A program made the position numbers and the translations under genes. The notes beneath the pieces are model-generated. The model ran no database searches, had not been told where the DNA came from, and saw only the letters and a program-made list of their open reading frames with translations. Of a DNA stretch of 64,000 nt, positions 5,405 to 17,432 are shown one piece after another; position 1 is the stretch's first letter; every line of letters begins with the position of its first letter. Source of the stretch: Steroidobacter gossypii (lineage in GTDB: Bacteria; Pseudomonadota; Gammaproteobacteria; Steroidobacterales; Steroidobacteraceae); assembly GCF_016801985.1 (NCBI RefSeq), contig NZ_JAEVLS010000005.1, positions 620,001 through 684,000 on the forward strand. The letters run 5' to 3'.

Positions 5405-6787
5405 TCAGGGCGAATCGAGAGTGGGATTGGCAGCCGTCGCCGAACTCGGTGGCTCCCCGGTTCCAAGGCGGCGCTGAATGTCTTCGAGTCGCACGCCGCT
5501 CGTTTCGGGGAAGAACATCAGCACGGCGATGAACTGGAGCACCACCATGATCAAGAACAAAAAGAATGGGCCGGCCTGCGACTGAGTCGCCACCACGGGA
5601 AAGGCGGCAGACACAATGGCGTTCATGACCCAATGCGTGGAACTGCCCAGACTCTGGCCTTGCGCGCGGACGCGGTCTGGGAAAATTTCGCTCAGGTAGA
5701 CCCAGATCACCGCGCCCTGAGAGAATGCGAAGAAGGCAACGTAGCCGACCAGCAGCAATAACAACAGCTGCTGATACTGGCCGATCTGAAAGATGGTGGC
5801 GATGCCCGCAAGACACACAGCCAACCCGGCCGAACCGACCAGCAGCAACGTCCGACGCCCGAAGCGATCGATGAGGCTGAGCGCGATCAGCGTCGCGATC
5901 AACATGGTCGCACCCACCGCAACGGCTTGCGCATTCTGCGAAGTGCGATCGAAACCGGCCATGGCAAAGATATCGTTCAGGTAATACAGCACGGCGTTGA
6001 TGCCGATCAGCTGATTGAACATGGCCAGGGTGAGCGCCAGCACGATGGGCCGGCGATAACGCCACTGAAACAAACGATCCGCATTGGGACTGGCATCCGA
6101 TTCCAGCGAAGCCCGGATCGCCACCAGCTCGGCGAGCGGTTGCGACGAGCCCAACTTCGCCAGCACCTGTTTGGCTTCCTCCAATCGACCTTGCGCGGCG
6201 AGCCAGCGTGGGCTCTGCGGGATGCCGATGAGCATCAATAGAAACAAAGCAGCGGGCGCCGCCGCGATGCCCAACTGCCAACGCCATTCGAGCGCGCCGA
6301 GCTCGAACAGGCCGATCACATAGTTCGACAGATACGCCAGCAGGATGCCGCCAATGATGTTGATTTGGAACGCGCCTACCAGGCGGCCGCGCCACGCCGG
6401 CGGTGCGATCTCGGCGATGTACACCGGCGCGATCACGGAGGAGCCGCCCATCCCCAAGCCGCCGATGAAACGGAATATCAGCAGCCATGTCCACGAGGTC
6501 GAGAACGCGCAGCCCAGCGCCGAAATCAAGTAACAGGACGCGAGAATCAGCAGACTCGTGCGCCCACCCAATACCCGGCCGAAGGACCCGGCGGCCATCG
6601 CGCCGATCACCGTGCCCCATAACGCCGCCGACACCGTGAATCCAAGCTCGCTGGGCGTGAGCCCGAACACTTGCGTCAAGCCTTGCGTGGATCCCGCGAT
6701 CACCGCGGTGTCGAACCCCAGCAATGAGCCGCCGAGCGCCGCCACCAAAACCGTGCGAATCAATGTGCCGTTGAGTGTGTTAGTCAT
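5405..6787 (-). CDS. Sugar-porter family MFS transporter
   Basis: The 460-residue protein has twelve predicted membrane segments and sugar-porter (XylE/GLUT-type) signatures: GGLGMGGSSVIAPVYIAEI with PPAWRGRLVG in the first half, IPQSPRWLAAQGR before the central loop, and DRFGRRTLLLVG in the second half. It would import a monosaccharide by proton symport or facilitation. The frame stays open far upstream, but the ATG at 6787 is chosen because it overlaps the stop of the preceding gene by four bases (ATGA) and begins the family N-terminus (GGSLLGFDTAVIAGS). It is the last gene of the ten-gene sugar operon and presumably imports its substrate. Confidence 0.9.
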   Translation of the reverse strand: MTNTLNGTLIRTVLVAALGGSLLGFDTAVIAGSTQGLTQVFGLTPSELGFTVSAALWGTVIGAMAAGSFGRVLGGRTSLLILASCYLISALGCAFSTSWTWLLIFRFIGGLGMGGSSVIAPVYIAEIAPPAWRGRLVGAFQINIIGGILLAYLSNYVIGLFELGALEWRWQLGIAAAPAALFLLMLIGIPQSPRWLAAQGRLEEAKQVLAKLGSSQPLAELVAIRASLESDASPNADRLFQWRYRRPIVLALTLAMFNQLIGINAVLYYLNDIFAMAGFDRTSQNAQAVAVGATMLIATLIALSLIDRFGRRTLLLVGSAGLAVCLAGIATIFQIGQYQQLLLLLLVGYVAFFAFSQGAVIWVYLSEIFPDRVRAQGQSLGSSTHWVMNAIVSAAFPVVATQSQAGPFFLFLIMVVLQFIAVLMFFPETSGVRLEDIQRRLGTGEPPSSATAANPTLDSP

Positions 6788-7962
6788 TGAGGTACGAGTC
6801 CCGGCAGTGTGCCTCTGCGCAGAAAATCGAGCTGACAGCGGACCGCGACGGCCGCTCCCGATCGCGCACGTAGCACGATGTTGTTGTCTCTCCAGTGCCC
6901 TTCGATGTCGGCGACGCAGTCGAAGTCCGACGGAATGCGCGTCACGCCCTGGATGTAAAAGATCGACAGTCGCCCATGCATGTCCGGGCGCAGGCAGGTA
7001 CTGATCCCGCGCGCGTTCAAGAAATTCTCGCGGACCGACGCGGCCAGGCCGACATGGAAGAACGCAGTGACGTCCTCCAACCCCATGACATTCACATGCC
7101 GACCGTTCCAAGGCGGGAAGTGACGCCCACCGTTGGAAAACCAGAGCAGCGTTGAAGCGAGTTGTCTGGGATCGCGCAACGCGAACCATACAAATTGCTG
7201 ATCCGGGAATGTCACCGCGGTCCAGGCGAATTCCTGCGTCGGATCCGCGCACAGGATTGCGATGTCTTCGAAGCCGCGACGCGCGGGATACTGCGTCAGA
7301 TCGGTGGTCGAGCCATCGATGCACGGCACTGAGCACGGATCGCTGAACTGAACATCGGGCTTGAGCCAGGAGTAACCGCGATCTTCCGGCCGCGCCGTCG
7401 GTTCGAAATAGGTTTGCGCATGAGCCAGCGCGCTGAACGTCAGTCGCCCCGCTCCTTCGCGGTCCGGAAATCGCAACGTGGCGTGGTGTCCGGGATTCAC
7501 CGGACCGGTCAGGCCGTGCAGATCGTGACGCTGATAAATGACGGAATGATTGGCGAGCAAGGCCGTGGTCGCCTGGCACGAGCCACCCTGCAGCGGCATT
7601 TCCACGCCCAATCGCAGCCAACAACCGTAGCGCGTTTCACCGCGGCCCATCTCGACCCAATCGCGATTTGCGGTTTCGCCATGCGGCGGAAGCCGCTGGC
7701 CAGCAACCGCTTCAGAGTTTTCGCCGAAGGCCGAGCAGAACCAATCCCCGCGCAGCGCCTTCAGCATCGCCGGGGTATCGGGCTCAAGCGGTTCTTCCGC
7801 CCAAGGCGCGACGGCATAAGGCCGAATCGGATGCTCCGACTCGGGGAAGAATGTGACTGGCCCGAGCATGCCACCCGTACGCGTCACAGCCGCCTCGACG
7901 CTGCGCACCTTGAGCAGGAAAGACTCCTGCCCCTGGATTTTGGTGGTGGACCCGGACGACAT
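6784..7962 (-). CDS. Unrecognised 392-residue protein in sugar operon
   Basis: I do not recognise a family with certainty. The sequence has no signal peptide or membrane segment and is rich in aromatic residues and beta-strand-like stretches. Features that stand out are LPPHGETANRDW near residues 93-104, NPGHHATLRFP near 157-167, FSNGGRHFPPWNGRH near 275-290 and CLRPDMHGRLSIFY near 324-337. The HG...N..W segment and the overall look recall the galactose-mutarotase/aldose-epimerase-like fold, so a sugar-binding or epimerase role is a reasonable but weak guess. It lies between the D-lyxose-isomerase-like gene (19-base gap) and the sugar transporter (4-base overlap), so it is almost certainly co-expressed with the pathway. 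Confidence 0.75.
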   Translation of the reverse strand: MSSGSTTKIQGQESFLLKVRSVEAAVTRTGGMLGPVTFFPESEHPIRPYAVAPWAEEPLEPDTPAMLKALRGDWFCSAFGENSEAVAGQRLPPHGETANRDWVEMGRGETRYGCWLRLGVEMPLQGGSCQATTALLANHSVIYQRHDLHGLTGPVNPGHHATLRFPDREGAGRLTFSALAHAQTYFEPTARPEDRGYSWLKPDVQFSDPCSVPCIDGSTTDLTQYPARRGFEDIAILCADPTQEFAWTAVTFPDQQFVWFALRDPRQLASTLLWFSNGGRHFPPWNGRHVNVMGLEDVTAFFHVGLAASVRENFLNARGISTCLRPDMHGRLSIFYIQGVTRIPSDFDCVADIEGHWRDNNIVLRARSGAAVAVRCQLDFLRRGTLPGLVPQ

Positions 7963-7981
7963 GAACGCCCCGGCTAGACCG

Positions 7982-8653
7982 CTAATATTCCGTGCACAGC
8001 TTGTGCGTTACCGGCACGTCTTCTTCGATGGTCGGAAAGCGTCCCACCTTGGCGTAGAAGGCGTTGTCGGTTTCGTCGTCGTTCACCGAGGACACTTCGC
8101 CCACGATCGACGTGCCGGTGCCTTCCTCGGCCCAGAATTCGTGATACAGATAGGGTGTCAAAGTGATGGAATCGCCGGGCTTCAAACGGAAGGTGTGCCC
8201 CGCCTTCACGCGATGTCGCACTCCGTCCAGCGAGACCTCCACGTCCGAGTCGGCGAGCTTCCCATCTTCAGCGCGGTTGAACAGCCGGATCAGCAGATTG
8301 CCGCCGGACTTACAAATGATGTCTTCCGACTTCAGCATGTGGTGATGCATCGGCGTGTGCTGATTCTCGCGGATGACCAGGATCTTCTCCGCGTACGGCT
8401 TCTTGTTATAAGGCGCACGCTGGTGATGTCCGTTGCGCACCGTGAACACCACGAGCCCGACCTTGTCGAAGTCACCCGAGCCGAAGTCGGTGATATCCCA
8501 GCCGAGTTTGCAATGCCGGATTTCGTCGCACTCCGGTCCCTTGCTTTGCCATTCGGCCGGGCTCCAGTACGCGAACGGCGGCAGACGAATCTGATGCTCA
8601 TGCAGCAGCGTGATCGCATCGTCGATCAGCGCATTGATTTCGGACCGTCTCAT
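7982..8653 (-). CDS. D-lyxose ketol-isomerase family cupin
   Basis: The 223-residue length and sequence match the D-lyxose/D-mannose isomerase family, which interconverts aldose and ketose (for example D-lyxose and D-xylulose). The metal site is visible as QHTPMHHHMLKSEDII near residues 98-113 with a later histidine in LYHEFWAEEG near 168-177. The family uses a cupin barrel with a divalent metal such as Mn. A further conserved segment is KVGLVVFTVRNG. It lies fifth from the end of the regulated part of the operon, directly after the aldolase/SDR fusion (24-base gap). The true substrate here may be another C4-C6 aldose. Confidence 0.88.
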   Translation of the reverse strand: MRRSEINALIDDAITLLHEHQIRLPPFAYWSPAEWQSKGPECDEIRHCKLGWDITDFGSGDFDKVGLVVFTVRNGHHQRAPYNKKPYAEKILVIRENQHTPMHHHMLKSEDIICKSGGNLLIRLFNRAEDGKLADSDVEVSLDGVRHRVKAGHTFRLKPGDSITLTPYLYHEFWAEEGTGTSIVGEVSSVNDDETDNAFYAKVGRFPTIEEDVPVTHKLCTEY

Positions 8654-8677
8654 GTTCCCCCCGGACTATGACTTGAA

Positions 8678-10642
8678 TCAGATGACCCGCTCGTTGCCGC
8701 CGTCGACTGGAATCTGCGCCCCCGTGGTCTTGGCAAAGCGGGGCCCACACAAGTCGGCGGCAAGCTCGGCGACATCCCGGCTCGTGACCTCGGTCTTGAG
8801 CACGTTGTTGGTTTTATACTCCTGAACGCTCAAGTTATAAGAGGCGGCGCGCGCCGCCAGCACTTCCGGCGTCCAGATGCCTGTATCGAAAACGGCATTG
8901 GGGTGCAGGCAGTTCACCCGAATGCGCTCGCTGCCCCATTCCAGCGCGGCAACGCGCGCCAGTTGCTGGACCGCCGATTTCGAGGCCGAATACGCCGCGG
9001 CGCCCGGACCGGGGGCGGCGACGTTCTTCGAACCGATGATCGCGACCCGACCGCCGCGGGGCGAGAACTTGAGCAAAGGGAAGCAGTCGCGCATCAAGAT
9101 GAGATTGGCATCGAGATTGATGCTCATGGTCTTGCGCCATACCTCGGTAGGCATGGCGGCGATGGGCGTGCTCTTGGGAAAAATGCCAGCATTCAGCACC
9201 AACATATCGATCGAGCCGAACGCCCACACGCTCTGATCCAGCGCCGCGGCAATCTGTTCCTCGCTGGTCAGATCGCACTCGATCCCGAGATAGCTCTTGC
9301 GCTGGTAGAGCGTTTTGACGGCAGGCGATACATCCAGCCCCACGACAGCGGCGCCACGTTCGAGCAGCACATCGACGCAGGCTTTGCCGATGCCGGAGGC
9401 GGCGCCCGTCACCAACGCGACCTCGCCTAGAAACATCTGCGACGGATCCGGCTTGGCCAGCTTGGTGCGCTCCAGATCCCAGAACTCGACTTCGAAAAAG
9501 TCCTTCGCCGGCAGCGCGCGCCAGCCGCCCAGCCGCTCGGCGCTCATGATGATGTCGATGGTGTGTCGGTAGATGTCTTCGGCGATGGCGGCGTCCTCCG
9601 CGCTTCGCCCGAGCACACCCATGCCAAGTTGAGGATCGAGAATCACGCGTGGCGCCGGATCAACCATTGCCAATGCCCGATCGTTGGCGTGAAAGCGCAC
9701 GTATTCTTTGTAAGCTGCGGCGTAACCGGCGACGTCGCGGCCGACCATGGGAATGCGCTTGGTGCGAATCACATGATCTGGGGTGACTCCGCCACGGCCA
9801 GAAAGCTCGACGACATCCTCGCGTCTTGCAAATCCCAAAGCCTGCGCATCGGCGTGCACGGACAAGATCATCGGAGCACCCGCGACCTTGCTGATTTCTT
9901 GTCTGAGCGCCGCGATCTCGACGCGGGAAGGCCGAGGCGGATCTTGCGCTGGCCACTCCATGCGAGCTGCACCGTGCGCTTCCAGGTGCTGCTCGGCCCG
10001 TGAGACCAGCTCGATCATGCGATCGTAGGAAAGCTTCGCGGTATCACCGAATGTGAACAAGCCGTGATGCATGAGGATCACGCCGATGGTGTCGCGAGTC
10101 GCTTCTTTGGCCAGAATCTCGCGACACAGCCGCACCAGTTTAAAGCCCGGCATGGCATATGGGATGATCACGACCAGTCCGCCGTAGAGTTCCTGCAACC
10201 GCTCGAAGCCGTTGCGTGAGTTCATCACCGCAATGAGCGCATCGGAATGTGTGTGGTCGACAAATGCCTGAGGCAGCAGCGCGTGCAGCAGTGTCTCGAC
10301 CGAAGGCGCTGGGGCGGACGCGCGCGTCAACGAGAGCTTGAGCTCGCTCTCCATGTGCTCATCGGACAGTTCGGTTAGAGTGATCAGTCGCAGCAGGCGG
10401 CGCAGACGACAAGGAGCGAAGCCGCTGGCATCGATGGTCGCGAGGTCGGCGCCGCGCCCTTTGACGTAGAGCACTTCTTCCGGTTCGCCGAAAACATTTG
10501 TTTCGAGCAGCTTGACCGAGGTGTTGCCTCCGCCATGGAGCACCAGCGATGGATCACTCCCCAGCAATCGCGACGTATAAACCCGTTGGCCCAACGGCCC
10601 CTGAAATCGTGCCGCCTCCTGATCGTTCCACAGACTCTTCAT
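8678..10642 (-). CDS. Bifunctional class II aldolase / short-chain dehydrogenase
   Basis: This 654-residue protein is a known type of fusion. The N-terminal ~400 residues form a class II (Zn) aldolase/adducin domain with GGGNTSVK near 38-45, VDHTHSDA near 133-140 and MHHGLFTFG near 192-200, the histidines being the metal ligands. The C-terminal ~240 residues form an NAD(P)-dependent SDR with TGAASGIG (near 415) and the catalytic YSASK (near 560). Related fusions couple rhamnulose-1-phosphate-type aldol cleavage with oxidation of a lactaldehyde or polyol. The start codon lies inside the last unit of a 16-bp tandem repeat, and a mini-ORF ends one base before it. In this operon it could oxidise a phosphorylated ketose ahead of the LsrF-like thiolase, which is inference. 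Confidence 0.9.
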   Translation of the reverse strand: MKSLWNDQEAARFQGPLGQRVYTSRLLGSDPSLVLHGGGNTSVKLLETNVFGEPEEVLYVKGRGADLATIDASGFAPCRLRRLLRLITLTELSDEHMESELKLSLTRASAPAPSVETLLHALLPQAFVDHTHSDALIAVMNSRNGFERLQELYGGLVVIIPYAMPGFKLVRLCREILAKEATRDTIGVILMHHGLFTFGDTAKLSYDRMIELVSRAEQHLEAHGAARMEWPAQDPPRPSRVEIAALRQEISKVAGAPMILSVHADAQALGFARREDVVELSGRGGVTPDHVIRTKRIPMVGRDVAGYAAAYKEYVRFHANDRALAMVDPAPRVILDPQLGMGVLGRSAEDAAIAEDIYRHTIDIIMSAERLGGWRALPAKDFFEVEFWDLERTKLAKPDPSQMFLGEVALVTGAASGIGKACVDVLLERGAAVVGLDVSPAVKTLYQRKSYLGIECDLTSEEQIAAALDQSVWAFGSIDMLVLNAGIFPKSTPIAAMPTEVWRKTMSINLDANLILMRDCFPLLKFSPRGGRVAIIGSKNVAAPGPGAAAYSASKSAVQQLARVAALEWGSERIRVNCLHPNAVFDTGIWTPEVLAARAASYNLSVQEYKTNNVLKTEVTSRDVAELAADLCGPRFAKTTGAQIPVDGGNERVI

Positions 10643-10707
10643 CTCACAGACTCTTCATCCCACCGATTCTTGATCTCACGGATTCATCCCACTGATGCTT
10701 CATCTCA
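10631..10707 (-). repeat. Five-unit 16-bp tandem repeat at a gene junction
   Basis: Read on the minus strand the units are TGAGATGAAGCATCAG, TGGGATGAATCCG (3 bases short), TGAGATCAAGAATCGG, TGGGATGAAGAGTCTG and TGAGATGAAGAGTCTG. The first unit contains the stop codon of the epimerase gene and the last contains the start codon of the aldolase/SDR gene. The last two units differ by one base. The array looks like repeated duplication of an original ATGA-type junction. Confidence 0.9.
10644..10703 (-). CDS. Possible 19-codon mini-ORF bridging two operon genes
   Basis: Within the tandem repeat, an ATG at 10703 overlaps the epimerase stop (ATGA) and opens a 19-codon frame, MKHQWDESVRSRIGGMKSL. Its TGA at 10646-10644 ends one base before the ATG of the aldolase/SDR gene. 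A second in-frame ATG lies in the fourth repeat. Read-through of ribosomes could therefore keep the two large genes translationally coupled despite the 57-base insertion. No peptide function is implied. Confidence 0.35.
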   Translation of the reverse strand: MKHQWDESVRSRIGGMKSL

Positions 10708-11401
10708 GGGCATGCATCATGTGCTGCGCGTTTTCGAAAGGCGCCTTGCCGTCGAACACCGCGCTGCCAGTGACGATGATGTCGGCGCCGAGCCGCGCTA
10801 CGTTCGCGATGTTGTCTTGGGTAACGCCGCCGTCGACGCAGATCAGCGCCGTGTCGCGGACGATTTCCCGAACTCGTTTGACCCGCTCACAAGTGGACGC
10901 AATGAACTTCTGACCACCCCAACCTGGATTCACCGCGAGCAGCAGGACCATCTCGAACTCGCCAGCCAAAGGCTCGATGGCTTCCAGCGGCGTGCCCGGA
11001 TTCAACGCGATACCTCGGACGATGCCGCGATTCGGATCGTTCGCGTTGATCATCTTGCCCAACGCCTGAAGTACTCGATGCACATGGCGCGTGGATTCGA
11101 CGTGCACCGTGATGATGTCCGCGCCGGCGGCAACGAAGCCATCGAGCTTGCTCAATGGATCCTCGATCATCAGGTGCACGTCTTTGAGCAGTCGGGTCTT
11201 GAACCCGGCGACCACCGGCGCACCGAGCGTCAACATCGGGCAGAAGGCGCCATCCATCACATCGAAATGCAACAGCTCGACGCCCGCACGCTCCATCAGC
11301 TCCAACTGCGCGCCCAGCGTGAGCCAGTCGGCAGTGAGCACCCCCACGCTGATCTGAGGCGCGGATGCGCGCAGGCGATCAACGAGGGGCGGCCGCGTCA
11401 T
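10700..11401 (-). CDS. Ribulose-phosphate 3-epimerase family protein
   Basis: The 233-residue product has the (beta/alpha)8 Rpe signature: HFDVMDGAF near residue 46, DVHLMIEDP near 76, VNPGWGGQKF near 150 and CVDGGV near 184. These supply the His/Asp metal ligands and the two catalytic aspartates. The first signature is divergent (SVGVLTADW where Rpe has an APS-ILSADF-like start), and the housekeeping rpe is normally elsewhere. I therefore read this as a pathway-specific epimerase acting on a ketose phosphate, similar in logic to allulose-6-phosphate epimerase. It starts 1 base after the LsrF-like gene stop and ends inside the tandem repeat. Confidence 0.88.
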   Translation of the reverse strand: MTRPPLVDRLRASAPQISVGVLTADWLTLGAQLELMERAGVELLHFDVMDGAFCPMLTLGAPVVAGFKTRLLKDVHLMIEDPLSKLDGFVAAGADIITVHVESTRHVHRVLQALGKMINANDPNRGIVRGIALNPGTPLEAIEPLAGEFEMVLLLAVNPGWGGQKFIASTCERVKRVREIVRDTALICVDGGVTQDNIANVARLGADIIVTGSAVFDGKAPFENAQHMMHALR

Positions 11402-11402
11402 T

Positions 11403-12296
11403 TCAATGCACCTTCGACTCTTCGCCCTTCAGCGACAGGAACAGCTCGTGCGCTTCCTTGGGCTTGAAGCCGTTATGAACGACCTTGTGAATCGCCTGCA
11501 TCATGGCGCGCGGCGCATCGCTCTGGAAAATATTGCGGCCCATGTCCACGCCGGCCGCGCCTCGCTGTATGGCGTTGTAAGCCATGGTCAATGCATCGAG
11601 CTCCGGCAACTTCTTGCCGCCCGCCATGACGATGGGCACGGGGCATGAAGCGGTGACTGTTTCGAAGCCTTCGGCGCAGTAGTAGGTTTTGACGATCTGC
11701 GCGCCCAACTCGGCACAGATGCGACAGGCGAGCCGCAAGTATTGAGCGTCGCGAGTCAACTCCTTGCCCACTGCCGTGACCGCCATGGTCGGGATGCTGT
11801 AGCGCATGCCCATGTCGACCAACCGAGTCATGTTGTGCACGGAACGAGTTTCGAATTCGCCGCCGATGAATACCTGCAGCGTCAGGGCCGATACATTCAT
11901 GCGAATCGCATCTTCGATGTCGACCGCGAGCTCTTCGTTGGACAGCTCTTTGAGAATGCTCGGGCCGCCACTGCATCTCATCACGATTGGCTTGTTGATC
12001 GCTGGCGGCACGGTGGTGCGCAGAATCCCTCGCGTCAGCATCAATGCGTCCGCCATGGGCATGAGCGGCACAATATTCAGATCGACACGCTCCAGTCCCG
12101 TGGTCGGCCCCTGGAAATAACCGTGATCGATGGCAAGCATCACGGTGCGGGCGGTTTCCGGATTGAAGATGCGCGCCAGGCGATTCTTCATGCCCCAGTC
12201 GAGCGAACTGGCGCCGCGCAAAAAGAACCCCGGCGTTCGCACCGGCACGTGTTCGAAAAAGTTCTTGGCCTCTTTGAGTGCGTCTGTATCAGCCAT
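11403..12296 (-). CDS. LsrF-like class I aldolase/thiolase
   Basis: The 297-residue protein closely resembles E. coli LsrF along its whole length: [15 protein letters not shown] near 33-47, [19 protein letters not shown] near 54-72, GAQIVKTYY near 190-198 with the Schiff-base-type lysine, and MAGGKKLPE and [12 protein letters not shown] toward the C-terminus. LsrF moves an acetyl group from 3-hydroxy-5-phosphooxypentane-2,4-dione to CoA, giving DHAP and acetyl-CoA. No other lsr gene is present; the neighbours are sugar kinase, isomerase and epimerase. An analogous thiolytic cleavage of a different phosphorylated diketose is the likely role here. The start overlaps the E1 stop by eight bases. 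Confidence 0.9.
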
Positions 12297-14310
12297 GGCT
12301 CTCCTCCAGAATCTGTCGCACGCCCGTCAAGATGCGACGAGCGTCGGGTCGGTATGCGTTCTCCAGCACTGGCGTGAAAGGCACGGGCACGTCTGGCGAG
12401 GCCACGCGAGACACCCGCACCTGCGGCCAACGTTCGGCGATGCCGGCTGCGATCTCAGCGCCGACGCCGCCAGTGATCGGCCCTTCCTCGACGATCACCG
12501 CGCGACCGGTTTTGCGAACCGATGCGCCGATGGTGTCCCAGTCGATGGGCGACAGACTGCGCACATCGATGACTTCGGCATCGACATCCTCGGCAGCCTG
12601 CATGGCGTAATGGACCATCAGCAGCCAGGCGAGCACGGTCACGCGCTGGCCTTCACGCCGCACGGCTGCCTTGCCCAGCGGCACCACATAGTCTTCGTTG
12701 GGAATTTCGCTCGAAGCATCCACCGCGCCGCCTTCGGCGCGCGCGCCTTTCGAGCCATACAGCAGTTTGTGCTCGAACATCAGCACCGGGTTGCCATCGC
12801 GCAGCGCCGCTTTGAGCAGCCCCTTGGCGTCGTAAGCATTCGACGGCGCGACCACTTTGAGGCCCGGGACGCCGGTGAAGTAGCGTTCCATGTTCTGTGC
12901 ATGTTGCGATCCGCGGCCAGTCGCGCCCACCGGGGCACGCATGACCAGCGGCACGCTCGCCGTGCCGCCGGACATGTATCTCAGCTTGGCTGCGTTGTTG
13001 ATGATTTGATCGCTGGCCAGAAACAGGAAGTCGCCATACTGCACGTCGGCGATCGGGCGCATGCCCATCATGGCCGCGCCGGTGGCGAGCCCGAAAAAGC
13101 CCAGCTCCGCAATCGGCGTATTGACGAGGCGATCTGGAAATTTCTTTTCCAGCCCGAGCGTCACGGTGAACGCTCCGCCCCACCCTCCCGGCACTCCGAT
13201 GTCTTCGCCGATGCAGAACACGCGCGGATCGGCAGCCATCTCTTCGGCGATACCTTCCCGCAAAGCTTCGGCGATGCCGAGACGCCGCGTTTGTCCACCC
13301 GGACTCAAGACGGGGTTTGATTGTTCTACAAGCGCGGTTGGACGCGGCGGCGCCTCGGCAAAAACGTACTCGGTCAGACCGCTGACATCCGGATGGGGTG
13401 CGGCCTTGGCGCGCTCGACAGCTTCGGCCAGCTGCTTCTGAACGCGCGTACTGATGATCTCGTGTTCCTCGGCCGTGACACCGATCTTCGTGGCGAAACG
13501 TTCGATCGGATCACGCTGAGCCCAGGCCTCGCGCTCGTCCTTGGGCTGATAGTGACAAGGATCCCGGCGCGAATGACCGGTGCGACGATAGGTCAGCAGC
13601 TCCAGCAGCACCGGCCCCTTGCCCGCGCGGCAGTCGGCAACCGCCTTCTGCGCAGCTTCATACACGGCAAGCACGTCGTTGCCGTCGACCGTTTCTCCGC
13701 GGAAACCATACGAAGCCGCGCGATCCGAGATACGCGAATTCTTCATGACGAGATCCACGTGCGTGGATGCGCCATATAAATTGTTTTCGCACACCAGAAT
13801 CACCGGCAGATTCCAGATGGCCGCCATGTTGACGCCTTCATGGAATGCGCCTTCGGCGACCGCCCCGTCGCCGAAGAACGAGGCCACCACGTGTGGCTTG
13901 TTTTCCATCTTGAAGGACAAGGCCATCCCGGCCGCGAGCGGAATGCCCCCAGCCACGATGGCGATGCCCGGCACCATCCCCTTGCTCATGTTGCCGACGT
14001 GCATGGAGCCGCCGCGACCTTTGCAGCAGCCCGTCTCGGCGCCAAACAGTTCATCCATCAGCTCTTGTGGAGAGAGCCCTTTGGCCAACGCATGCCCGTG
14101 GCCACGAAATGTCGAGGTGATCCAATCGTCCGGCGCGAGCGCGGAGCACACGCCGACGGCGGTTGCTTCCTGGCCCTGGCACTGATGAATCGTGCCGGGC
14201 ATGGTGCCTTCCAGGAACAGAAACTTGACCGTGTCCTCGAACTCACGGACCAACACCATGCGCTCGTACAAATCGAGCAGGAACTTGCGCTCGTAAGTCG
14301 GGGTCGACAT
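12289..14310 (-). CDS. Fused E1 alpha-beta subunit of a 2-oxoacid/acyloin dehydrogenase
   Basis: One 673-residue polypeptide carries both halves of a thiamine-diphosphate E1 that are usually separate genes. The alpha half (about 1-330) has the ThDP motif [13 protein letters not shown] near 158 ending in CENN, plus GRGGSMH. The beta half (about 350-673) has [38 protein letters not shown] in two parts, and a C-terminal transketolase-C domain ([14 protein letters not shown]). Such E1s decarboxylate a 2-oxo acid, or cleave an acyloin as in acetoin dehydrogenase, and pass the acyl group to lipoyl-lysine. The adjacent upstream gene is a lone lipoyl domain (1-base overlap); no E2 catalytic domain or E3 is present nearby. 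The frame is open further upstream but the ATG at 14310 begins the family N-terminus. Confidence 0.92.
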
Positions 14311-14552
14311 CAGCTCACCTTGATCGTTGCGATGATGGTGCCGACCGCAACCTTCTGCCCGGACTGCACATGAATGGTCTTGAGGGTGCCGTTGGCGATG
14401 CATTCCACTTCCTGCACGGCCTTGTCGGTTTCGACCTCGAGCAGCGCCTGACCGCGCTTGACTGCATCGCCCTCGGTGACCAGCCAGCGGGTGATGCCCA
14501 GCTCCACGCCCTCGTTGGTGGCGAGATCGGGCATCTTCATATTCAAATCCAT
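14310..14552 (-). CDS. Free-standing lipoyl-carrier domain protein
   Basis: The 80-residue protein is a single biotinyl/lipoyl domain: MPDLATNEG at the start, then EVETDKAVQEV with the modifiable Lys44 at the beta-hairpin turn, and a second half ending VAVGTIIATIKVS. It matches the N-terminal lipoyl domain of E2 acyltransferases but stops there, with no peripheral-subunit-binding or catalytic domain. Its gene lies 2 bases after the PfkB gene and overlaps the E1 start by one base, so it very probably receives the acyl group from that E1. The ATG at 14552 is preferred over longer in-frame starts, which would add an Arg-rich antisense-like extension. Confidence 0.88.
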   Translation of the reverse strand: MDLNMKMPDLATNEGVELGITRWLVTEGDAVKRGQALLEVETDKAVQEVECIANGTLKTIHVQSGQKVAVGTIIATIKVS

Positions 14553-14554
14553 CG

Positions 14555-15508
14555 TCAGCGGCCCTCGGTGACAGTCAGTGGATGAGCGATCAGAAAGGCT
14601 TCTGCCTCGGCGGCGGAAAACACGGAATCGGTGGTGCCCGCGGCGCGCGTGGCCGACGCGCCGACGGCGCTTGCGTAGCGAAGTGTTTTGGGCAGATCCC
14701 AGCCTTGCAGCAGGCTGCGAATCACGCCGGACGTGAATGCGTCGCCCGAGCCGGACGGATCGACCACATCCATGCTGTAGGCGCCGCAGGTCCACATCTT
14801 TCCGTCGCGACCGGCCACCGATCCTTGACCGCCGCGCGTAACGATCACGGTATTGGCGCCGGCGTCGGTGAATGCACGCAGCTGATCGAAGGGATCGACC
14901 AGCCCGGTAAAGGCGCGAGCTTCATCGTCGTTGGGCAGGAACACGTCGATGAGCGGCAGCAGCGGCTTGAGCTGAGCCATGCCGACCTGGCCTTGCGGAA
15001 CGACCACGTCGACCACGGTCTTGACCTTGGCTTCACGACAGCAGGTCAACAGCGCCGCGAGTTTCCCAAAGTCGATGCCGGGCAGAGCAAACAATCCGCC
15101 CAGATAGAACACTTTGAGCGACGCCAGCCATTGAGGAGCAATCTGCTCGACGGCAAAGGCGCGATTCGCACCGAACACGTGCAGGTAACGCCGGTCCTGC
15201 CCTTCAATCAATAAAACAATGGTGCGACTGGTGGGATATTGCTCGACTCGCACGATGCCCGACGTGCCGATGTCATGACGGGCGAAACTTTTGACCAGAG
15301 CATCGGCGGCGCCATCGCGCCCGACACAGCCAGCGAGGTCGACCGTCACTCCTTGCTTGGCGAGATCGATGGCGACGTTGGCTGCACAGCCGCCGGCGCG
15401 CACCGGCAGATCGTCCAGGGCCAGCAAGGAGCCGGCCGGCGGCAAGGCGGCCAGCGGTCCGCAGAATGTGTCCTCAACCAACAGCCCCGCACACCCGACA
15501 TCTGGCAT
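14555..15508 (-). CDS. PfkB-family sugar kinase
   Basis: The 317-residue protein is a ribokinase-fold kinase. The N-terminal signature is present as RAGGCAANVAIDLAKQG near 37-53. The C-terminal signature DPSGSGDAFTSG near 250-261 has the catalytic aspartate and anion hole. It would phosphorylate a sugar or ketose using ATP. In the operon it follows the class II aldolase-like gene (3-base gap) and precedes the lipoyl gene. Its likely job is to phosphorylate the ketose made by the isomerase before epimerisation and cleavage. Substrate cannot be named from sequence. Confidence 0.9.
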   Translation of the reverse strand: MPDVGCAGLLVEDTFCGPLAALPPAGSLLALDDLPVRAGGCAANVAIDLAKQGVTVDLAGCVGRDGAADALVKSFARHDIGTSGIVRVEQYPTSRTIVLLIEGQDRRYLHVFGANRAFAVEQIAPQWLASLKVFYLGGLFALPGIDFGKLAALLTCCREAKVKTVVDVVVPQGQVGMAQLKPLLPLIDVFLPNDDEARAFTGLVDPFDQLRAFTDAGANTVIVTRGGQGSVAGRDGKMWTCGAYSMDVVDPSGSGDAFTSGVIRSLLQGWDLPKTLRYASAVGASATRAAGTTDSVFSAAEAEAFLIAHPLTVTEGR

Positions 15509-15511
15509 GGG

Positions 15512-16372
15512 TCACACCTTGCCGCAGCAGCCGAGAAGCTCGATGCGTTCGAGAACCGCGTCTCTCACCACGCGTCGACCCACGACCATCAGATCCGTGT
15601 TGCTGCCATCGCCCAGCAGCGCATGCGGATTCGGTTCGTCCGTGGCCAGCGCGCCGCGAATCACTTCAAGATACTTCTGTTTCATATAGGTGCCATAGTT
15701 GATCTTCCTGACACCCAGATGGATCGCCGCCCGGATCGAGTCGTCTTCGATGCCGGTGCCGCCATGGAGCACCAGCGGCACATCGAGCCGCCGGCCGACG
15801 GCCTCGAGCCGATTCAGATCGAGCGGCGCTCGACCCTGCAGCTTGATCTCTTCGTTTCCTACGCTCACCGCGAGCAGATCGACGCCGGTTTCGGCCACGA
15901 ACCGGGCCGCGCCGTCGGCGTAGGCGATCGGGTCCAGCTCGTCGGCCTCGAAGTCCGCTTCGACCGCGACCTGGTGACTGTGCGCCAGCGTCGCGAGGCG
16001 CTTCACGCGGCGCATGTAATCGTCCAGCGGCGCCTCGGGATCGGCGGGCATGACCAGATTGAAGCCGGCGCCGATGGCATGCTCGACCCAGGCGTCGTTG
16101 GGACATTCGTTGAAGATCAATCCGACCGGTACATCCGCATCCATGGCGGCGGCCTTGCCCAACGCTGCATACAACCGCAGCTCCTGAGTCGACGCCCCCT
16201 GCCGTTCCGCCAGCCACTCGCCGTTGAATCCGATGATGACGGGCGAGCGCGTGGCCTGGGCCGCATCGATCACGCCCTGCACGGATTCGAAGCTCCAGCT
16301 CTCGAAATACCCGACCGCATAGTCGTGGTGACGGGCGTGTTGCATCAGACGATTGATCGGTTCGAGGGACAT
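15512..16372 (-). CDS. Class II fructose-bisphosphate-aldolase-like protein with altered metal ligands
   Basis: The 286-residue protein aligns by eye along its length with GatY/KbaY/FbaA aldolases: HHDYAVGYFESWSFESVQGV near the start, PLVLHGGTGIEDDSIRAAI near 205-223 and GVRKINYGTYMKQ near 226-238. The family catalytic/zinc motif HLDHH is here LIFNECPN (near residues 103-110), so the catalytic Asp is replaced by Asn and the first zinc His by Glu. The second zinc His (GTAHG in GatY) is also Glu (GNEEI). Only the histidine in LHGGTG remains. It is therefore either an aldolase with a different metal site or a repurposed TIM barrel. It is the first gene of the operon, directly behind the palindromic control region. 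Confidence 0.8.
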   Translation of the reverse strand: MSLEPINRLMQHARHHDYAVGYFESWSFESVQGVIDAAQATRSPVIIGFNGEWLAERQGASTQELRLYAALGKAAAMDADVPVGLIFNECPNDAWVEHAIGAGFNLVMPADPEAPLDDYMRRVKRLATLAHSHQVAVEADFEADELDPIAYADGAARFVAETGVDLLAVSVGNEEIKLQGRAPLDLNRLEAVGRRLDVPLVLHGGTGIEDDSIRAAIHLGVRKINYGTYMKQKYLEVIRGALATDEPNPHALLGDGSNTDLMVVGRRVVRDAVLERIELLGCCGKV

Positions 16373-16452
16373 GGAAGAACTCGCGGTTGGGCGATGTCGA
16401 TGAGCTCCCGGACGGATCTGCCGGGGCCGCTGACTGACGTTCGCTTATTGAA

Positions 16453-16493
16453 TGAAGTTCACTTGGCCTGTAATGTTTGTGAACGTAGTTCAC
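16453..16493. promoter_or_regulatory. Palindromic operator candidates between RpiR gene and sugar operon
   Basis: Two related palindromes lie between the divergent genes: TGAAGTTCA at 16453-16461 and GTGAACGTAGTTCAC at 16479-16493. Both contain the half-sites TGAA and TTCA, with centres 29 bases apart (about three helical turns). The position, midway between the aldolase-like gene start (16372) and the regulator start (16536), is right for binding by the RpiR-type regulator. Binding is inferred. Confidence 0.6.
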
Positions 16494-16535
16494 GGTACGC
16501 GGGCGCTGGTGCGATGTCAAGGCTGCCCATAGAAT

Positions 16536-17432
16536 GTGCAAGTGCGACGCAAGAATTCACTGACGAGAAAAGCGGGGGAGCTGCCGGAGACGGACGGCCG
16601 TCGGGCGCTGCTCACCTATATCAAAGGCATCCTCGCCTCTCTCAATCCGACAGACCGGTTGATCGCGGACTGTGTGCTGGCCGATCCGGAGAAAGTGATC
16701 AGTTCTTCCATCGCGCAGCTCAAGGACGATTGCGGAGCCAGCGTCGGCGCCATCGTCGCGTTCTGTCGGCGCATGGGCCTCACCGGTTTCGCCGAGTTCA
16801 AGATCGCGCTGGCGCGCGATCTGGCGCAGTCCGGCCTGCCGGGCGGCCAGGCGCAGGAGAACGGCTCGCTGCTCGAGAAGGTGTTTCAGGTCCACTCGCA
16901 AAGCCTGATCGAAACGTTGCAGATCAATCCGACCGCGCAGTTCGAGCGGATTGCGCAGGTGATCGACAAGAGCCGGCGCGTGGAGTTGTTTTCCATCGGG
17001 CTGTCCTACCCGGTGGCGCACACCGCCTACTGCAAGTTTCTATTGCTGGGGCTGCAGGCCTCGGCCCACTTCGATTCGCACATTCAGCTGATCGCCGCCA
17101 CCCAGCTCGAGAAGGGCGATGTCGCCATCGGCATTTCGCTGTCTGGCACCACTCGTGAAACCGTGGAGTGCCTGGAGGTCGCCAAGGCCAAGGGCGCCAC
17201 CACGATCTGCCTGACCAACGCGGTGAAGTCGCCCATCACCGCGCATAGCGATTACTCCTTGTATGCGACGCCGAGCGAGATCAAATATTTCCAGGCGCCG
17301 TTGGCCTCGCGTGTCACACAGCTCGCGCTGATCGATGCGTTGTTCGTTTTCCTGGCGCTGAAACACAAGACGCGGACCGCGGCCAAGCTGCAGCAGTCCG
17401 GAGAAGAATTGATCAAGCGGCGATTGGAATAG
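16536..17432 (+). CDS. RpiR-family transcriptional regulator (HTH + SIS)
   Basis: The 298-residue protein has an N-terminal HTH_6 domain (about 25-100; SSSIAQLKDDCGASVGAIVA with RRMGLTGFAEFKIALARDL) and a C-terminal SIS phosphosugar-binding domain (about 130-270; FSIGLSYPVAHTAY and ISLSGTTRETVE). RpiR regulators sense phosphosugars and control sugar catabolism genes. It is transcribed divergently from the ten-gene sugar operon with palindromes between them, so it is the likely regulator of that operon. The chosen start is a GTG; a second in-frame GTG two codons later is equally possible. Confidence 0.9.
   Translation: MQVRRKNSLTRKAGELPETDGRRALLTYIKGILASLNPTDRLIADCVLADPEKVISSSIAQLKDDCGASVGAIVAFCRRMGLTGFAEFKIALARDLAQSGLPGGQAQENGSLLEKVFQVHSQSLIETLQINPTAQFERIAQVIDKSRRVELFSIGLSYPVAHTAYCKFLLLGLQASAHFDSHIQLIAATQLEKGDVAIGISLSGTTRETVECLEVAKAKGATTICLTNAVKSPITAHSDYSLYATPSEIKYFQAPLASRVTQLALIDALFVFLALKHKTRTAAKLQQSGEELIKRRLE

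What the first reader, a model, noticed from the sequence alone, without database searches (positions are those of the whole stretch)
5405..17432. Ten-gene sugar operon combining LsrF thiolase with lipoyl-linked E1: a candidate undescribed catabolic pathway
Seen: ten minus-strand genes with gaps from -8 to +57 bases, in the order class II aldolase-like, PfkB kinase, lipoyl domain, fused E1, LsrF-like, Rpe-like, aldolase/SDR, lyxose-isomerase-like, unknown, MFS, with a divergent RpiR regulator. Known: LsrF thiolytically splits a phosphorylated 2,4-diketone to DHAP and acetyl-CoA; E1 plus lipoyl proteins cleave 2-oxo acids or acyloins oxidatively. Inference: an imported aldose is isomerised, phosphorylated, epimerised and oxidised to a phospho-diketose. 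It is then split by LsrF to DHAP plus an acyl-CoA, with E1/lipoyl handling a second two-carbon unit. I know of no named pathway with this set.
Basis: partly seen in the sequence, partly recalled or inferred. Interest (0 to 1): 0.85.

Follow-up and report, generated by a model that had tools for sequence, protein, structure and literature searches.

The report
Sugar operon with pyruvate-dehydrogenase-like cleavage
A ten-gene soil-bacterium operon that seems to break down an unidentified sugar carries a gene set shared, in parts, with many unrelated bacteria and matched to no pathway in the papers I could search, and two very different enzymes (a disarmed aldolase and a relative of the CO2-fixing enzyme RuBisCO) appear to do the same job in it.

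Summary
The operon is real. Ten tightly packed minus-strand genes keep their order in three Steroidobacter-type genomes, with a divergent RpiR gene and two conserved palindromes. A scan with its fused E1 kept 78 loci, mostly from uncultured bacteria: 54 also have the aldolase-like gene (FBA*), 69 a lipoyl domain, 34 a PfkB kinase, 11 LsrF. FBA* is no normal class II aldolase: its catalytic Asp-His is Asn-Glu in 54 of 54 sequences. Four of the loci without FBA*, and one further operon, carry a RuBisCO-like protein instead, with another kinase and/or isomerase but the same E1 type and, in three, LsrF and Rpe. One Opitutaceae genome holds both versions as separate operons. The window's lipoyl protein has no acyltransferase domain; of 35 long E2 proteins in the cluster, 34 lack the HxxxDG aspartate. 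I read it as a ketose-1-phosphate pathway: FBA* or the RuBisCO-like protein shifts the carbonyl, E1 plus lipoyl cuts the acyloin oxidatively, and SDR-Rpe-LsrF gives triose phosphate plus acyl thioester. Gene sets and residue changes are shown; substrate and reactions are inferred. The open-access papers I searched did not describe it.

The parts
15512..16372 (-). FBA*: class II fructose-bisphosphate-aldolase fold, catalytic Asp-His replaced by Asn88-Glu89; the next metal His is also Glu in the Steroidobacter type
   Evidence: PF01116 158.6 bits; below the cut-off of each of the 20 NCBIfam models listed; motif in 54 of 54 aligned sequences; roles of the residues recalled
14555..15508 (-). PfkB-family sugar kinase, probably acting on a ketose
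   Evidence: PF00294 159.2 bits; best NCBIfam IolC-type 116.2 bits, cut-off 300
14310..14552 (-). free lipoyl-domain protein (80 aa) with ETDKA motif and no acyltransferase domain
   Evidence: PF00364 72 bits and no PF00198; start
12289..14310 (-). fused E1 alpha-beta ThDP dehydrogenase with clade-typical arginines (R251, R252, R469 in the numbering of window:12292-14319)
   Evidence: PF00676 268.1 bits, PF02779 139.8 bits, PF02780 106.4 bits; residues; start
11403..12296 (-). LsrF-type thiolase/aldolase
   Evidence: NF006081 501.6 bits, cut-off 297; PDB 3gkf 384 bits; Lys203 in 12 of 12
10700..11401 (-). ribulose-phosphate 3-epimerase family protein
   Evidence: PF00834 182.5 bits; TIGR01163 197.7 bits, cut-off 212.6; subfamily NF004076 174.8 bits, cut-off 165
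8678..10642 (-). class II aldolase (RhaD/FucA fold) fused to a short-chain dehydrogenase
   Evidence: NF006196 999.7 bits, cut-off 831; HTH and HHG motifs kept (role as metal ligands recalled)
7982..8653 (-). D-lyxose/D-mannose isomerase family cupin
   Evidence: PF07385 319 bits; PDB 3kmh 216.8 bits
6784..7962 (-). protein of unassigned family; relatives beside carbohydrate genes on Rhizobium and Phaeobacter plasmids
   Evidence: no Pfam or NCBIfam match at E 0.001; relatives about 30% identical, contexts
5405..6787 (-). MFS sugar porter
   Evidence: PF00083 343.9 bits; TIGR00879 330.5 bits, cut-off 237.8; start ATG at 6787
16536..17432 (+). RpiR-type regulator with SIS domain (start codon uncertain)
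16449..16492 (.). two TGAAC-N3-GTTCA palindromes, candidate regulator sites
   Evidence: conserved in five aligned Steroidobacter-type loci; pattern search

Best explanation
A peripheral sugar-catabolic operon for one unidentified aldose. The MFS porter brings in the aldose (inferred); the lyxose-isomerase-like cupin makes the ketose (inferred from family); PfkB makes the ketose-1-phosphate (inferred). FBA*, an aldolase-fold protein that kept most of the motifs of the phosphate end of its site but lost the Asp-His pair needed for C-C cleavage, enolises the ketose-1-phosphate and moves its carbonyl along the chain, the job that a RuBisCO-like protein does in the alternative operon (interchange shown by gene content, reaction inferred). 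The product is an acyloin, R-CO-CHOH-CHOH-CH2-OP; the Rpe homologue sets its stereochemistry and E1 plus the lipoyl protein cut it oxidatively to acyl-lipoyl and glyceraldehyde-3-phosphate (inferred). The SDR with LsrF offers a second oxidative cut: the C4 hydroxyl is oxidised to a 2,4-diketose-1-phosphate, which LsrF splits with CoA to DHAP and R-CO-S-CoA (inferred). Either way the sugar ends as triose phosphate plus an acyl thioester. The operon lacks an E2, so the acyl group must leave the lipoyl arm through an E2 encoded elsewhere, another thiol acceptor or hydrolysis (unknown). A 6-deoxyhexose is my first guess for the substrate class.
For: Operon order conserved. Related gene sets in 78 loci. 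FBA* has NE for DH in 54 of 54, while HGG is kept in all and NxGT in 48 (Cys for Asn in five, NLGR in L087). RuBisCO-like protein in L033, L083, L088, L092 and L099, none of which shows an FBA* match, beside the same lipoyl/E1 type, with LsrF and Rpe in L088, L092 and L099. Of ten genomes searched for both, four have only the RuBisCO-like protein, five only FBA*, one (G278) both, in separate operons. In the E1 tree L032 (FBA*) lies inside the subclade of the RuBisCO-like loci (support 0.986 for the subclade, 0.916 and 0.843 for the inner nodes), so the front end was probably swapped. The RuBisCO-like proteins keep KPK and CKDDE motifs, 5 of 5. E1 arginines 251/252/469: 79 of 79, 78 of 79, 72 of 72 in rows at least 52% identical to the window; 1 of 17, 0 of 17, 4 of 22 in the rest (a few in-group rows are duplicates, and the Arthrobacter L012 counts inside for alpha and outside for beta). 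PMC3424233 (passages): PDH E1 mutants, among them Q408R and L633R, raise DXP about 20-fold, so an E1 can come to make a sugar-phosphate acyloin. PMC3870299 (passages): RhaEW gave neither DHAP nor lactate without NAD+, which fits oxidation before cleavage. A rhamnulokinase-like kinase is in the alternative operon L092 (TIGR02627 343 bits, cut-off 528) and an alpha-L-fucosidase gene in L032.
Against: No substrate, activity or expression data. E1/lipoyl and SDR/LsrF would be two routes to the same kind of products, and I cannot say why both are kept in one operon. The E1s of L013-L015, at least one of which (L015, with DRL) should act on DXP, lack R252 and R469, so the arginines are not required for such a substrate; one of the host's own other E1s (L112) also has R at 469. 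The lyxose-isomerase family does not fit L-fucose or L-rhamnose stereochemistry (recalled), which weakens the 6-deoxyhexose guess for those two. Rpe and LsrF are absent from most loci with the E1 (9 and 11 of 78). Many loci are short MAG contigs, so absences are weak, and the completeness of the ten genomes is not given.
Confidence: 0.42

Rival explanations
1. The parts are parallel and ordinary: a sugar is cut by the aldolase/SDR to DHAP plus an acid, pyruvate forms from it, and E1/lipoyl is a local pyruvate dehydrogenase paralogue that feeds the housekeeping E2/E3. FBA* is just a diverged aldolase.
For: E1 is closest to PDH-type E1 models (TIGR03182 342 bits, PRK09212 301 bits); the genome has six E2 catalytic domains elsewhere that could serve in trans; the aldolase/SDR keeps the HTH motif in 15 of 16 sequences with letters there.
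Against: Both E1 scores are under the curated cut-offs (394, 321); the genome already has other E1s; FBA* lost the catalytic pair in 54 of 54 sequences; a RuBisCO-like protein takes its place; in the cluster E2 is altered (34 of 35 long ones) or missing.
Confidence: 0.22
2. A methionine-salvage-like chain: the class II aldolase domain dehydrates ketose-1-phosphate (as MtnB does), the RuBisCO-like protein or FBA* acts as enolase (as MtnW does), a dioxygenase makes a 2-oxo acid, and E1/lipoyl decarboxylates it.
For: The RuBisCO-like protein is nearest MtnW (PRK09549 268.6 bits, cut-off 409; PDB 2oek 199 bits); MtnB is of the class II aldolase fold (recalled); a PhyH dioxygenase gene sits between E1 alpha and beta in L060, and a similar ORF in L040.
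Against: No phosphatase or dioxygenase among the ten window genes (one of the ten is unassigned); it leaves LsrF and Rpe without a role; the RuBisCO-like protein has KPK where MtnW has FKG (alignment).
Confidence: 0.13
3. One reading: the sugar is oxidised to a phospho-diketose, LsrF gives DHAP plus acyl-CoA, and E1/lipoyl then handles a second two-carbon unit.
For: LsrF, Rpe and SDR lie together (8 and 10 of 11 LsrF loci); LsrF is a close relative of the E. coli enzyme.
Against: Nothing points to a second two-carbon unit; the E1 exists without LsrF nearby in 67 of 78 loci.
Confidence: 0.12
4. Degradation of an autoinducer-2-like signal.
For: LsrF belongs to the AI-2 pathway in enterobacteria (annotation).
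Against: None of the nine assigned genes is of LsrK, LsrG, LsrB or LsrR type; sugar isomerase and sugar porter present; glycoside hydrolase genes near some relatives.
Confidence: 0.03

Closest known systems
L-rhamnose route with bifunctional RhaEW (PMC3870299, passages read)
   Same: aldolase/SDR fusion of the same family, ketose-1-phosphate logic; rhamnulokinase-like kinase in the alternative operon L092
   Different: no rhamnose isomerase or rhamnulokinase among the ten window genes; adds FBA*, E1/lipoyl and LsrF
Enterobacterial Lsr operon (AI-2 processing)
   Same: LsrF-type thiolase, which in E. coli gives DHAP and acetyl-CoA (recalled)
   Different: none of LsrK, LsrG, LsrABCD, LsrR recognised; PfkB instead of FGGY kinase
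Acetoin/pyruvate dehydrogenase complexes
   Same: E1 alpha and beta domains, lipoyl domain
   Different: no E2 catalytic domain or E3 in the operon; clade-typical residues differ; sugar genes around
myo-Inositol IolC/IolJ pair (roles recalled)
   Same: PfkB kinase plus class II aldolase-fold partner acting on a keto-CH2OP end
   Different: FBA* lost the catalytic Asp-His pair; PfkB far under the IolC cut-off
Methionine salvage RuBisCO-like proteins (MtnW; isomerase of R. rubrum; roles recalled)
   Same: RuBisCO-like protein acting on a keto sugar phosphate derivative
   Different: the one here is below the NCBIfam cut-offs (L092 and L033 scanned) and lies beside E1/lipoyl genes; it is not in the window

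Membership tests
Class II fructose-bisphosphate aldolase | fold | tested here: met
   PF01116 158.6 bits; PDB aldolases up to 98.5 bits; by sequence only
Class II fructose-bisphosphate aldolase | catalytic Asp and metal-binding His (motif LDH) | tested here: not met
   FNE in window; NE in 54 of 54 sequences
2-oxoacid dehydrogenase complex | ThDP E1 alpha and beta | tested here: met
2-oxoacid dehydrogenase complex | E2 acyltransferase domain in the set | tested here: not met
   no PF00198 in the operon proteins; six PF00198 matches elsewhere in the genome, none in the window
2-oxoacid dehydrogenase complex | activity on a 2-oxo acid | not testable with these tools
   needs enzyme assay
LsrF (P-HPD thiolase) | curated model score and Schiff-base lysine | tested here: met
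   501.6 bits vs 297; K203 12 of 12; role of K203 recalled
LsrF (P-HPD thiolase) | thiolysis of a 2,4-diketone phosphate | not testable with these tools
   needs assay
Lsr (AI-2) operon | LsrK, LsrG, LsrB, LsrR partners | tested here: not met
   nine of ten genes assigned to other families, one unassigned
RhaEW aldolase/dehydrogenase | score over the rhamnulose-1-P-specific model | tested here: not met
   TIGR02632 423.4 bits, cut-off 567.75; the general model NF006196 is met
D-lyxose isomerase | family fold | tested here: met
   PF07385 319 bits; by sequence only
D-lyxose isomerase | curated equivalog cut-off | tested here: not met
   NF051472 273.7 vs 350 bits

The most novel reading that the evidence does not exclude
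A catabolic pathway type not yet described: an aldolase turned isomerase, or interchangeably a RuBisCO-like protein, moves the carbonyl of a ketose-1-phosphate, and an E2-less pyruvate-dehydrogenase-type E1 with a lipoyl carrier cuts the sugar phosphate oxidatively into a triose phosphate and an acyl thioester, with SDR-Rpe-LsrF as a second thioester-forming cut. As far as I know it would be the first shown use of an E1/lipoyl machine on a sugar phosphate, and a new role for a RuBisCO-like protein.
Probability: 0.3. Interest if true: 0.88.

Novelty: new variant of a known kind. Interest (0 to 1): 0.72.

Why it matters
If right, it adds an energy-saving way to cut sugars (thioester plus triose phosphate instead of aldehyde plus triose phosphate), gives functions to two enzyme groups of unknown role (FBA* and this RuBisCO-like protein), and explains a gene cluster present in many uncultured Verrucomicrobia, Planctomycetes and Chloroflexi. 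Named Steroidobacter-type strains that carry the full operon (L016, L017, L031) make it testable by growth and gene removal.

Tried and rejected
UNK (6784-7962): AlphaFold2 on four sequences gave mean pLDDT 29.7, so no fold search was run; the only PDB match was at E 0.73, and none at E <= 1 for the Phaeobacter relative; of four relatives scanned, one matched DUF4432 at E 0.042; a profile-to-sequence comparison with E. coli YphB, GalM and YphG gave probability 0.1 each, a weak test with single sequences. A galactose-mutarotase-like role is only a guess. Other scans with it found no convincing relative in 274 genomes of its class besides its own (two short matches, E 1.1e-5 and 4.3e-4, that lay in unrelated ORFs).

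The number of palindromes in the window alone is not significant. Other E1 genes of the host at G000:C1 and C2 lie beside genes that by eye are NRPS and others, without FBA*, LsrF or LyxI matches, and were set aside; the C11 stretch (L118) was fetched but its gene content not examined. Plasmid searches with FBA* (25 of 236 and 40 of 196 records listed) showed no hit over 40% identity except the Arthrobacter record itself; I did not check the Asn-Glu motif in those hits. The greedy gene caller mixes antisense ORFs into clusters in GC-rich loci, so its cluster counts are rough and not used as numbers. L-fucose as the substrate was considered because of GH29 genes (L032 by Pfam; L064 by clustering only) and not adopted: the isomerase family does not fit (recalled). 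Gene names such as DeoR in L047 are by eye.


Full report
WHAT IS THERE. The ten minus-strand genes and the divergent RpiR gene are as described. The window lies at G000:C27:620001-684000 of a 7.1 Mb genome. The nearest named relatives are Steroidobacter agaridevorans (L016), Peristeroidobacter soli (L017) and P. agariperforans (L031), which have all ten genes in the same order, and a Steroidobacter MAG fragment (L018) with the first five, the last of them cut by the contig end. Two TGAAC-N3-GTTCA palindromes and a TTGACA box between FBA* and the RpiR gene are conserved in the five aligned regions.

HOW WIDE. One scan of genome contigs with the fused E1 found 97 relatives; the best 80 were kept, 78 distinct loci. 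Of these 78, a protein match (E 1e-8) to FBA* was found in 54, PfkB in 34, lipoyl in 69, aldolase/SDR (either half) in 25, LyxI in 11, LsrF in 11, Rpe in 9, MFS in 10, UNK in 3 (many contigs are short, so these are lower bounds for the genomes). Record titles name Verrucomicrobia, Planctomycetes, Chloroflexi, Lentisphaerae, Spirochaetes, Gemmatimonadaceae, Armatimonadetes, Actinomycetota and Rhodospirillales, mostly MAGs. An Arthrobacter plasmid has FBA*, fused E1, lipoyl protein, FGGY kinases and an ABC sugar transporter. The cluster is patchy: FBA* at E <= 1e-60 in 4 of 288 genomes of the Opitutaceae genome's phylum, two of them already known to me (G278, G282), and at E <= 1e-50 in 1 of 274 sampled genomes of the window's class, its own. 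With the E1 tree, where the Steroidobacter type groups with two Verrucomicrobia-type MAG loci (L024, L042; support 0.917), this suggests lateral transfer.

ODD ENZYMES. (1) FBA*: the HMMER alignment to aldolases puts Asn-Glu on the Asp-His of the LDH motif; all 54 sequences aligned (window, 52 of the 78 loci and the Arthrobacter L012) have NE there. All keep HGG; 48 keep NxGT, five have Cys for Asn (L071, L073, L076, L086, L090) and L087 has NLGR; five (the Steroidobacter type) have Glu for the second His, the other 49 keep it. That Asp and His are the catalytic acid/base and zinc ligand of class II aldolases is recalled. (2) Lipoyl/E2: of 82 loci examined (L012-L093), 73 had a lipoyl match. 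By the best match 21 have a short lipoyl ORF (some may be cut or wrongly called), 13 a lipoyl domain in one ORF with E1, and 39 a long E2-like ORF. Four of the 39 (L013, L014, L015, L082) belong to other complexes. Of the other 35, the HxxxDG aspartate is N (19), S (13), A (1) or G (1) in 34 and not found by the pattern in one (L058); L015 and L082 keep D, and in L013 and L014 the pattern was not found. Whether such E2s are inactive is not known. (3) E1: clade-typical Q46, C98, R251, R252 and R469. R251-R252 follow the conserved GHS, R469 precedes QH. Their position near the active site rests on recalled PDH numbering, not on a structure.

THE SWAP. Four E1 loci without an FBA* match (L033, L083, L088, L092) carry a RuBisCO-like protein, 85-89% identical in the pairs compared, with Pfam RuBisCO domains (L083 and L092 scanned) and no NCBIfam cut-off reached (L092 and L033 scanned; best PRK09549 268.6 of 409). 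L033, L088 and L092 also have a TIM-barrel isomerase-like gene of about 325 aa; L092 and L083 have an FGGY kinase (rhamnulokinase model 343 bits, cut-off 528, for L092). L088 and L092 have LsrF, Rpe and an SDR. Searching ten genomes for both proteins: RuBisCO-like only in G274-G277, FBA* only in G279-G283, both in G278 (genome completeness not given). G278 holds two operons: L047 (a DeoR-type regulator by eye, FBA*, an unassigned 456-aa gene, PfkB, E2*, E1 alpha, E1 beta, LyxI, LsrF, Rpe, URO-D family, aldolase/SDR, and an MFS gene on the other strand) and L099 (RuBisCO-like, FGGY kinase, TIM isomerase, lipoyl, E1 alpha, E1 beta, LsrF, and Rpe cut by the contig end). In the E1 tree L032, with FBA*, PfkB and LyxI, falls inside the subclade of the RuBisCO-like loci (supports 0.986, 0.963, 0.916, 0.843 from outer to inner node), and its genome showed no such protein. 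So the front end (isomerase, kinase, FBA* or RuBisCO-like protein) changes while the back end stays. Other loci lack both in the stretch seen; most of those contigs are short or the genes lie elsewhere (for L072 the genome has FBA* on other contigs). The RuBisCO-like gene is rare: 1 of 288 phylum genomes at E <= 1e-100, the known one.

READING. Kinases of these types, LsrF and the aldolase/SDR all point to a ketose-1-phosphate (recalled roles). RuBisCO-fold and class II aldolase-fold enzymes share enolisation of a keto phosphate; an aldolase without its Asp may enolise but hardly cut. The simplest common job is a carbonyl shift, which would give an acyloin for E1. PDH E1 mutants can raise DXP, an acyloin phosphate, in cells (PMC3424233, passages), and a Rhizobium operon with PTS, DRL (PF21135 229 bits, PDB 3upl 722 bits) and E1/E2 looks like the reverse, DXP cleavage. 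For the LsrF branch, RhaEW data (PMC3870299, passages) show no DHAP without NAD+, which I read as oxidation preceding cleavage; the authors read it as dependence of the aldolase domain on the dehydrogenase domain. LsrF with SDR would save the acyl group as a thioester.

WHAT I CANNOT SAY. The sugar, the order of the E1 and LsrF steps, why both exist in one operon, and who takes the acyl group from the lipoyl arm in E2-less lineages. Genes for alpha-L-fucosidase (L032), GH38 (L035, L053, weaker in L036), GH31 (L092) and PhyH (L060) near some relatives suggest that different lineages feed different sugars in.

LITERATURE. Eight searches of the open-access library, two of them on the DRL side question, showed no paper on this set. 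Lists were capped: I saw 2 of 2, 0 of 0, 5 of 5, 20 of 53, 15 of 98, 10 of 1,967, 10 of 23 and 2 of 2 papers as titles with the start of the abstract. Subscription papers and preprints are mostly not held. Three papers were read in passages: PMC3870299, PMC3424233, and PMC3847144 (on DRL).

Noticed in passing
L015 552-11254 (NZ_CP072158.1); L014: L015: gut-type PTS, DRL (DXR-like oxidoreductase), E1 alpha, E1 beta and E2 close together on a Rhizobium plasmid, thiamine genes downstream. L014 has the same PTS and E1/E2 genes beside a gene annotated homoserine dehydrogenase, where DRL was not tested. Candidate route for 2-C-methyl-D-erythritol through DXP to acetyl-CoA and GAP.
   Followed up: partly
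L060 10969-11790; L040 about 10950-11787: A PhyH-type Fe/2-oxoglutarate dioxygenase gene sits between E1 alpha and E1 beta in L060 (Pfam) and by sequence likeness in L040 and other Opitutae loci, with GH38 and DUF4450 proteins in some.
   Followed up: partly
L029, L034, L042, L043, L045, L049, L052, L062, L067, L075, L078, L081, L083: Lipoyl domain in one ORF with E1 alpha and no E2 between them (13 loci).
   Followed up: partly
L124, L125: LsrF homologue directly after DhaK and DhaL genes in Aureibacter and Parabacteroides, without Lsr genes in the stretch shown.
   Followed up: no
L126 3752-9081: Sagittula gene run: FAD glycerol-3-phosphate-dehydrogenase-like oxidase, FGGY kinase, LsrF, class II aldolase with ABC sugar transporter: another LsrF use with an oxidase.
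   Followed up: no
window 6784-7962; L128-L131: Unnamed protein family with shared motifs (GDxFC, SNGGR, PWxGRH) beside carbohydrate genes (moc-like genes in R. etli, FAH and mandelate-racemase-type genes in Phaeobacter).
   Followed up: partly
L047 14467-15552; L072, L073, L074, L088: URO-D family (PF01208) genes near the cluster; L047 scanned, the others by clustering only.
   Followed up: no
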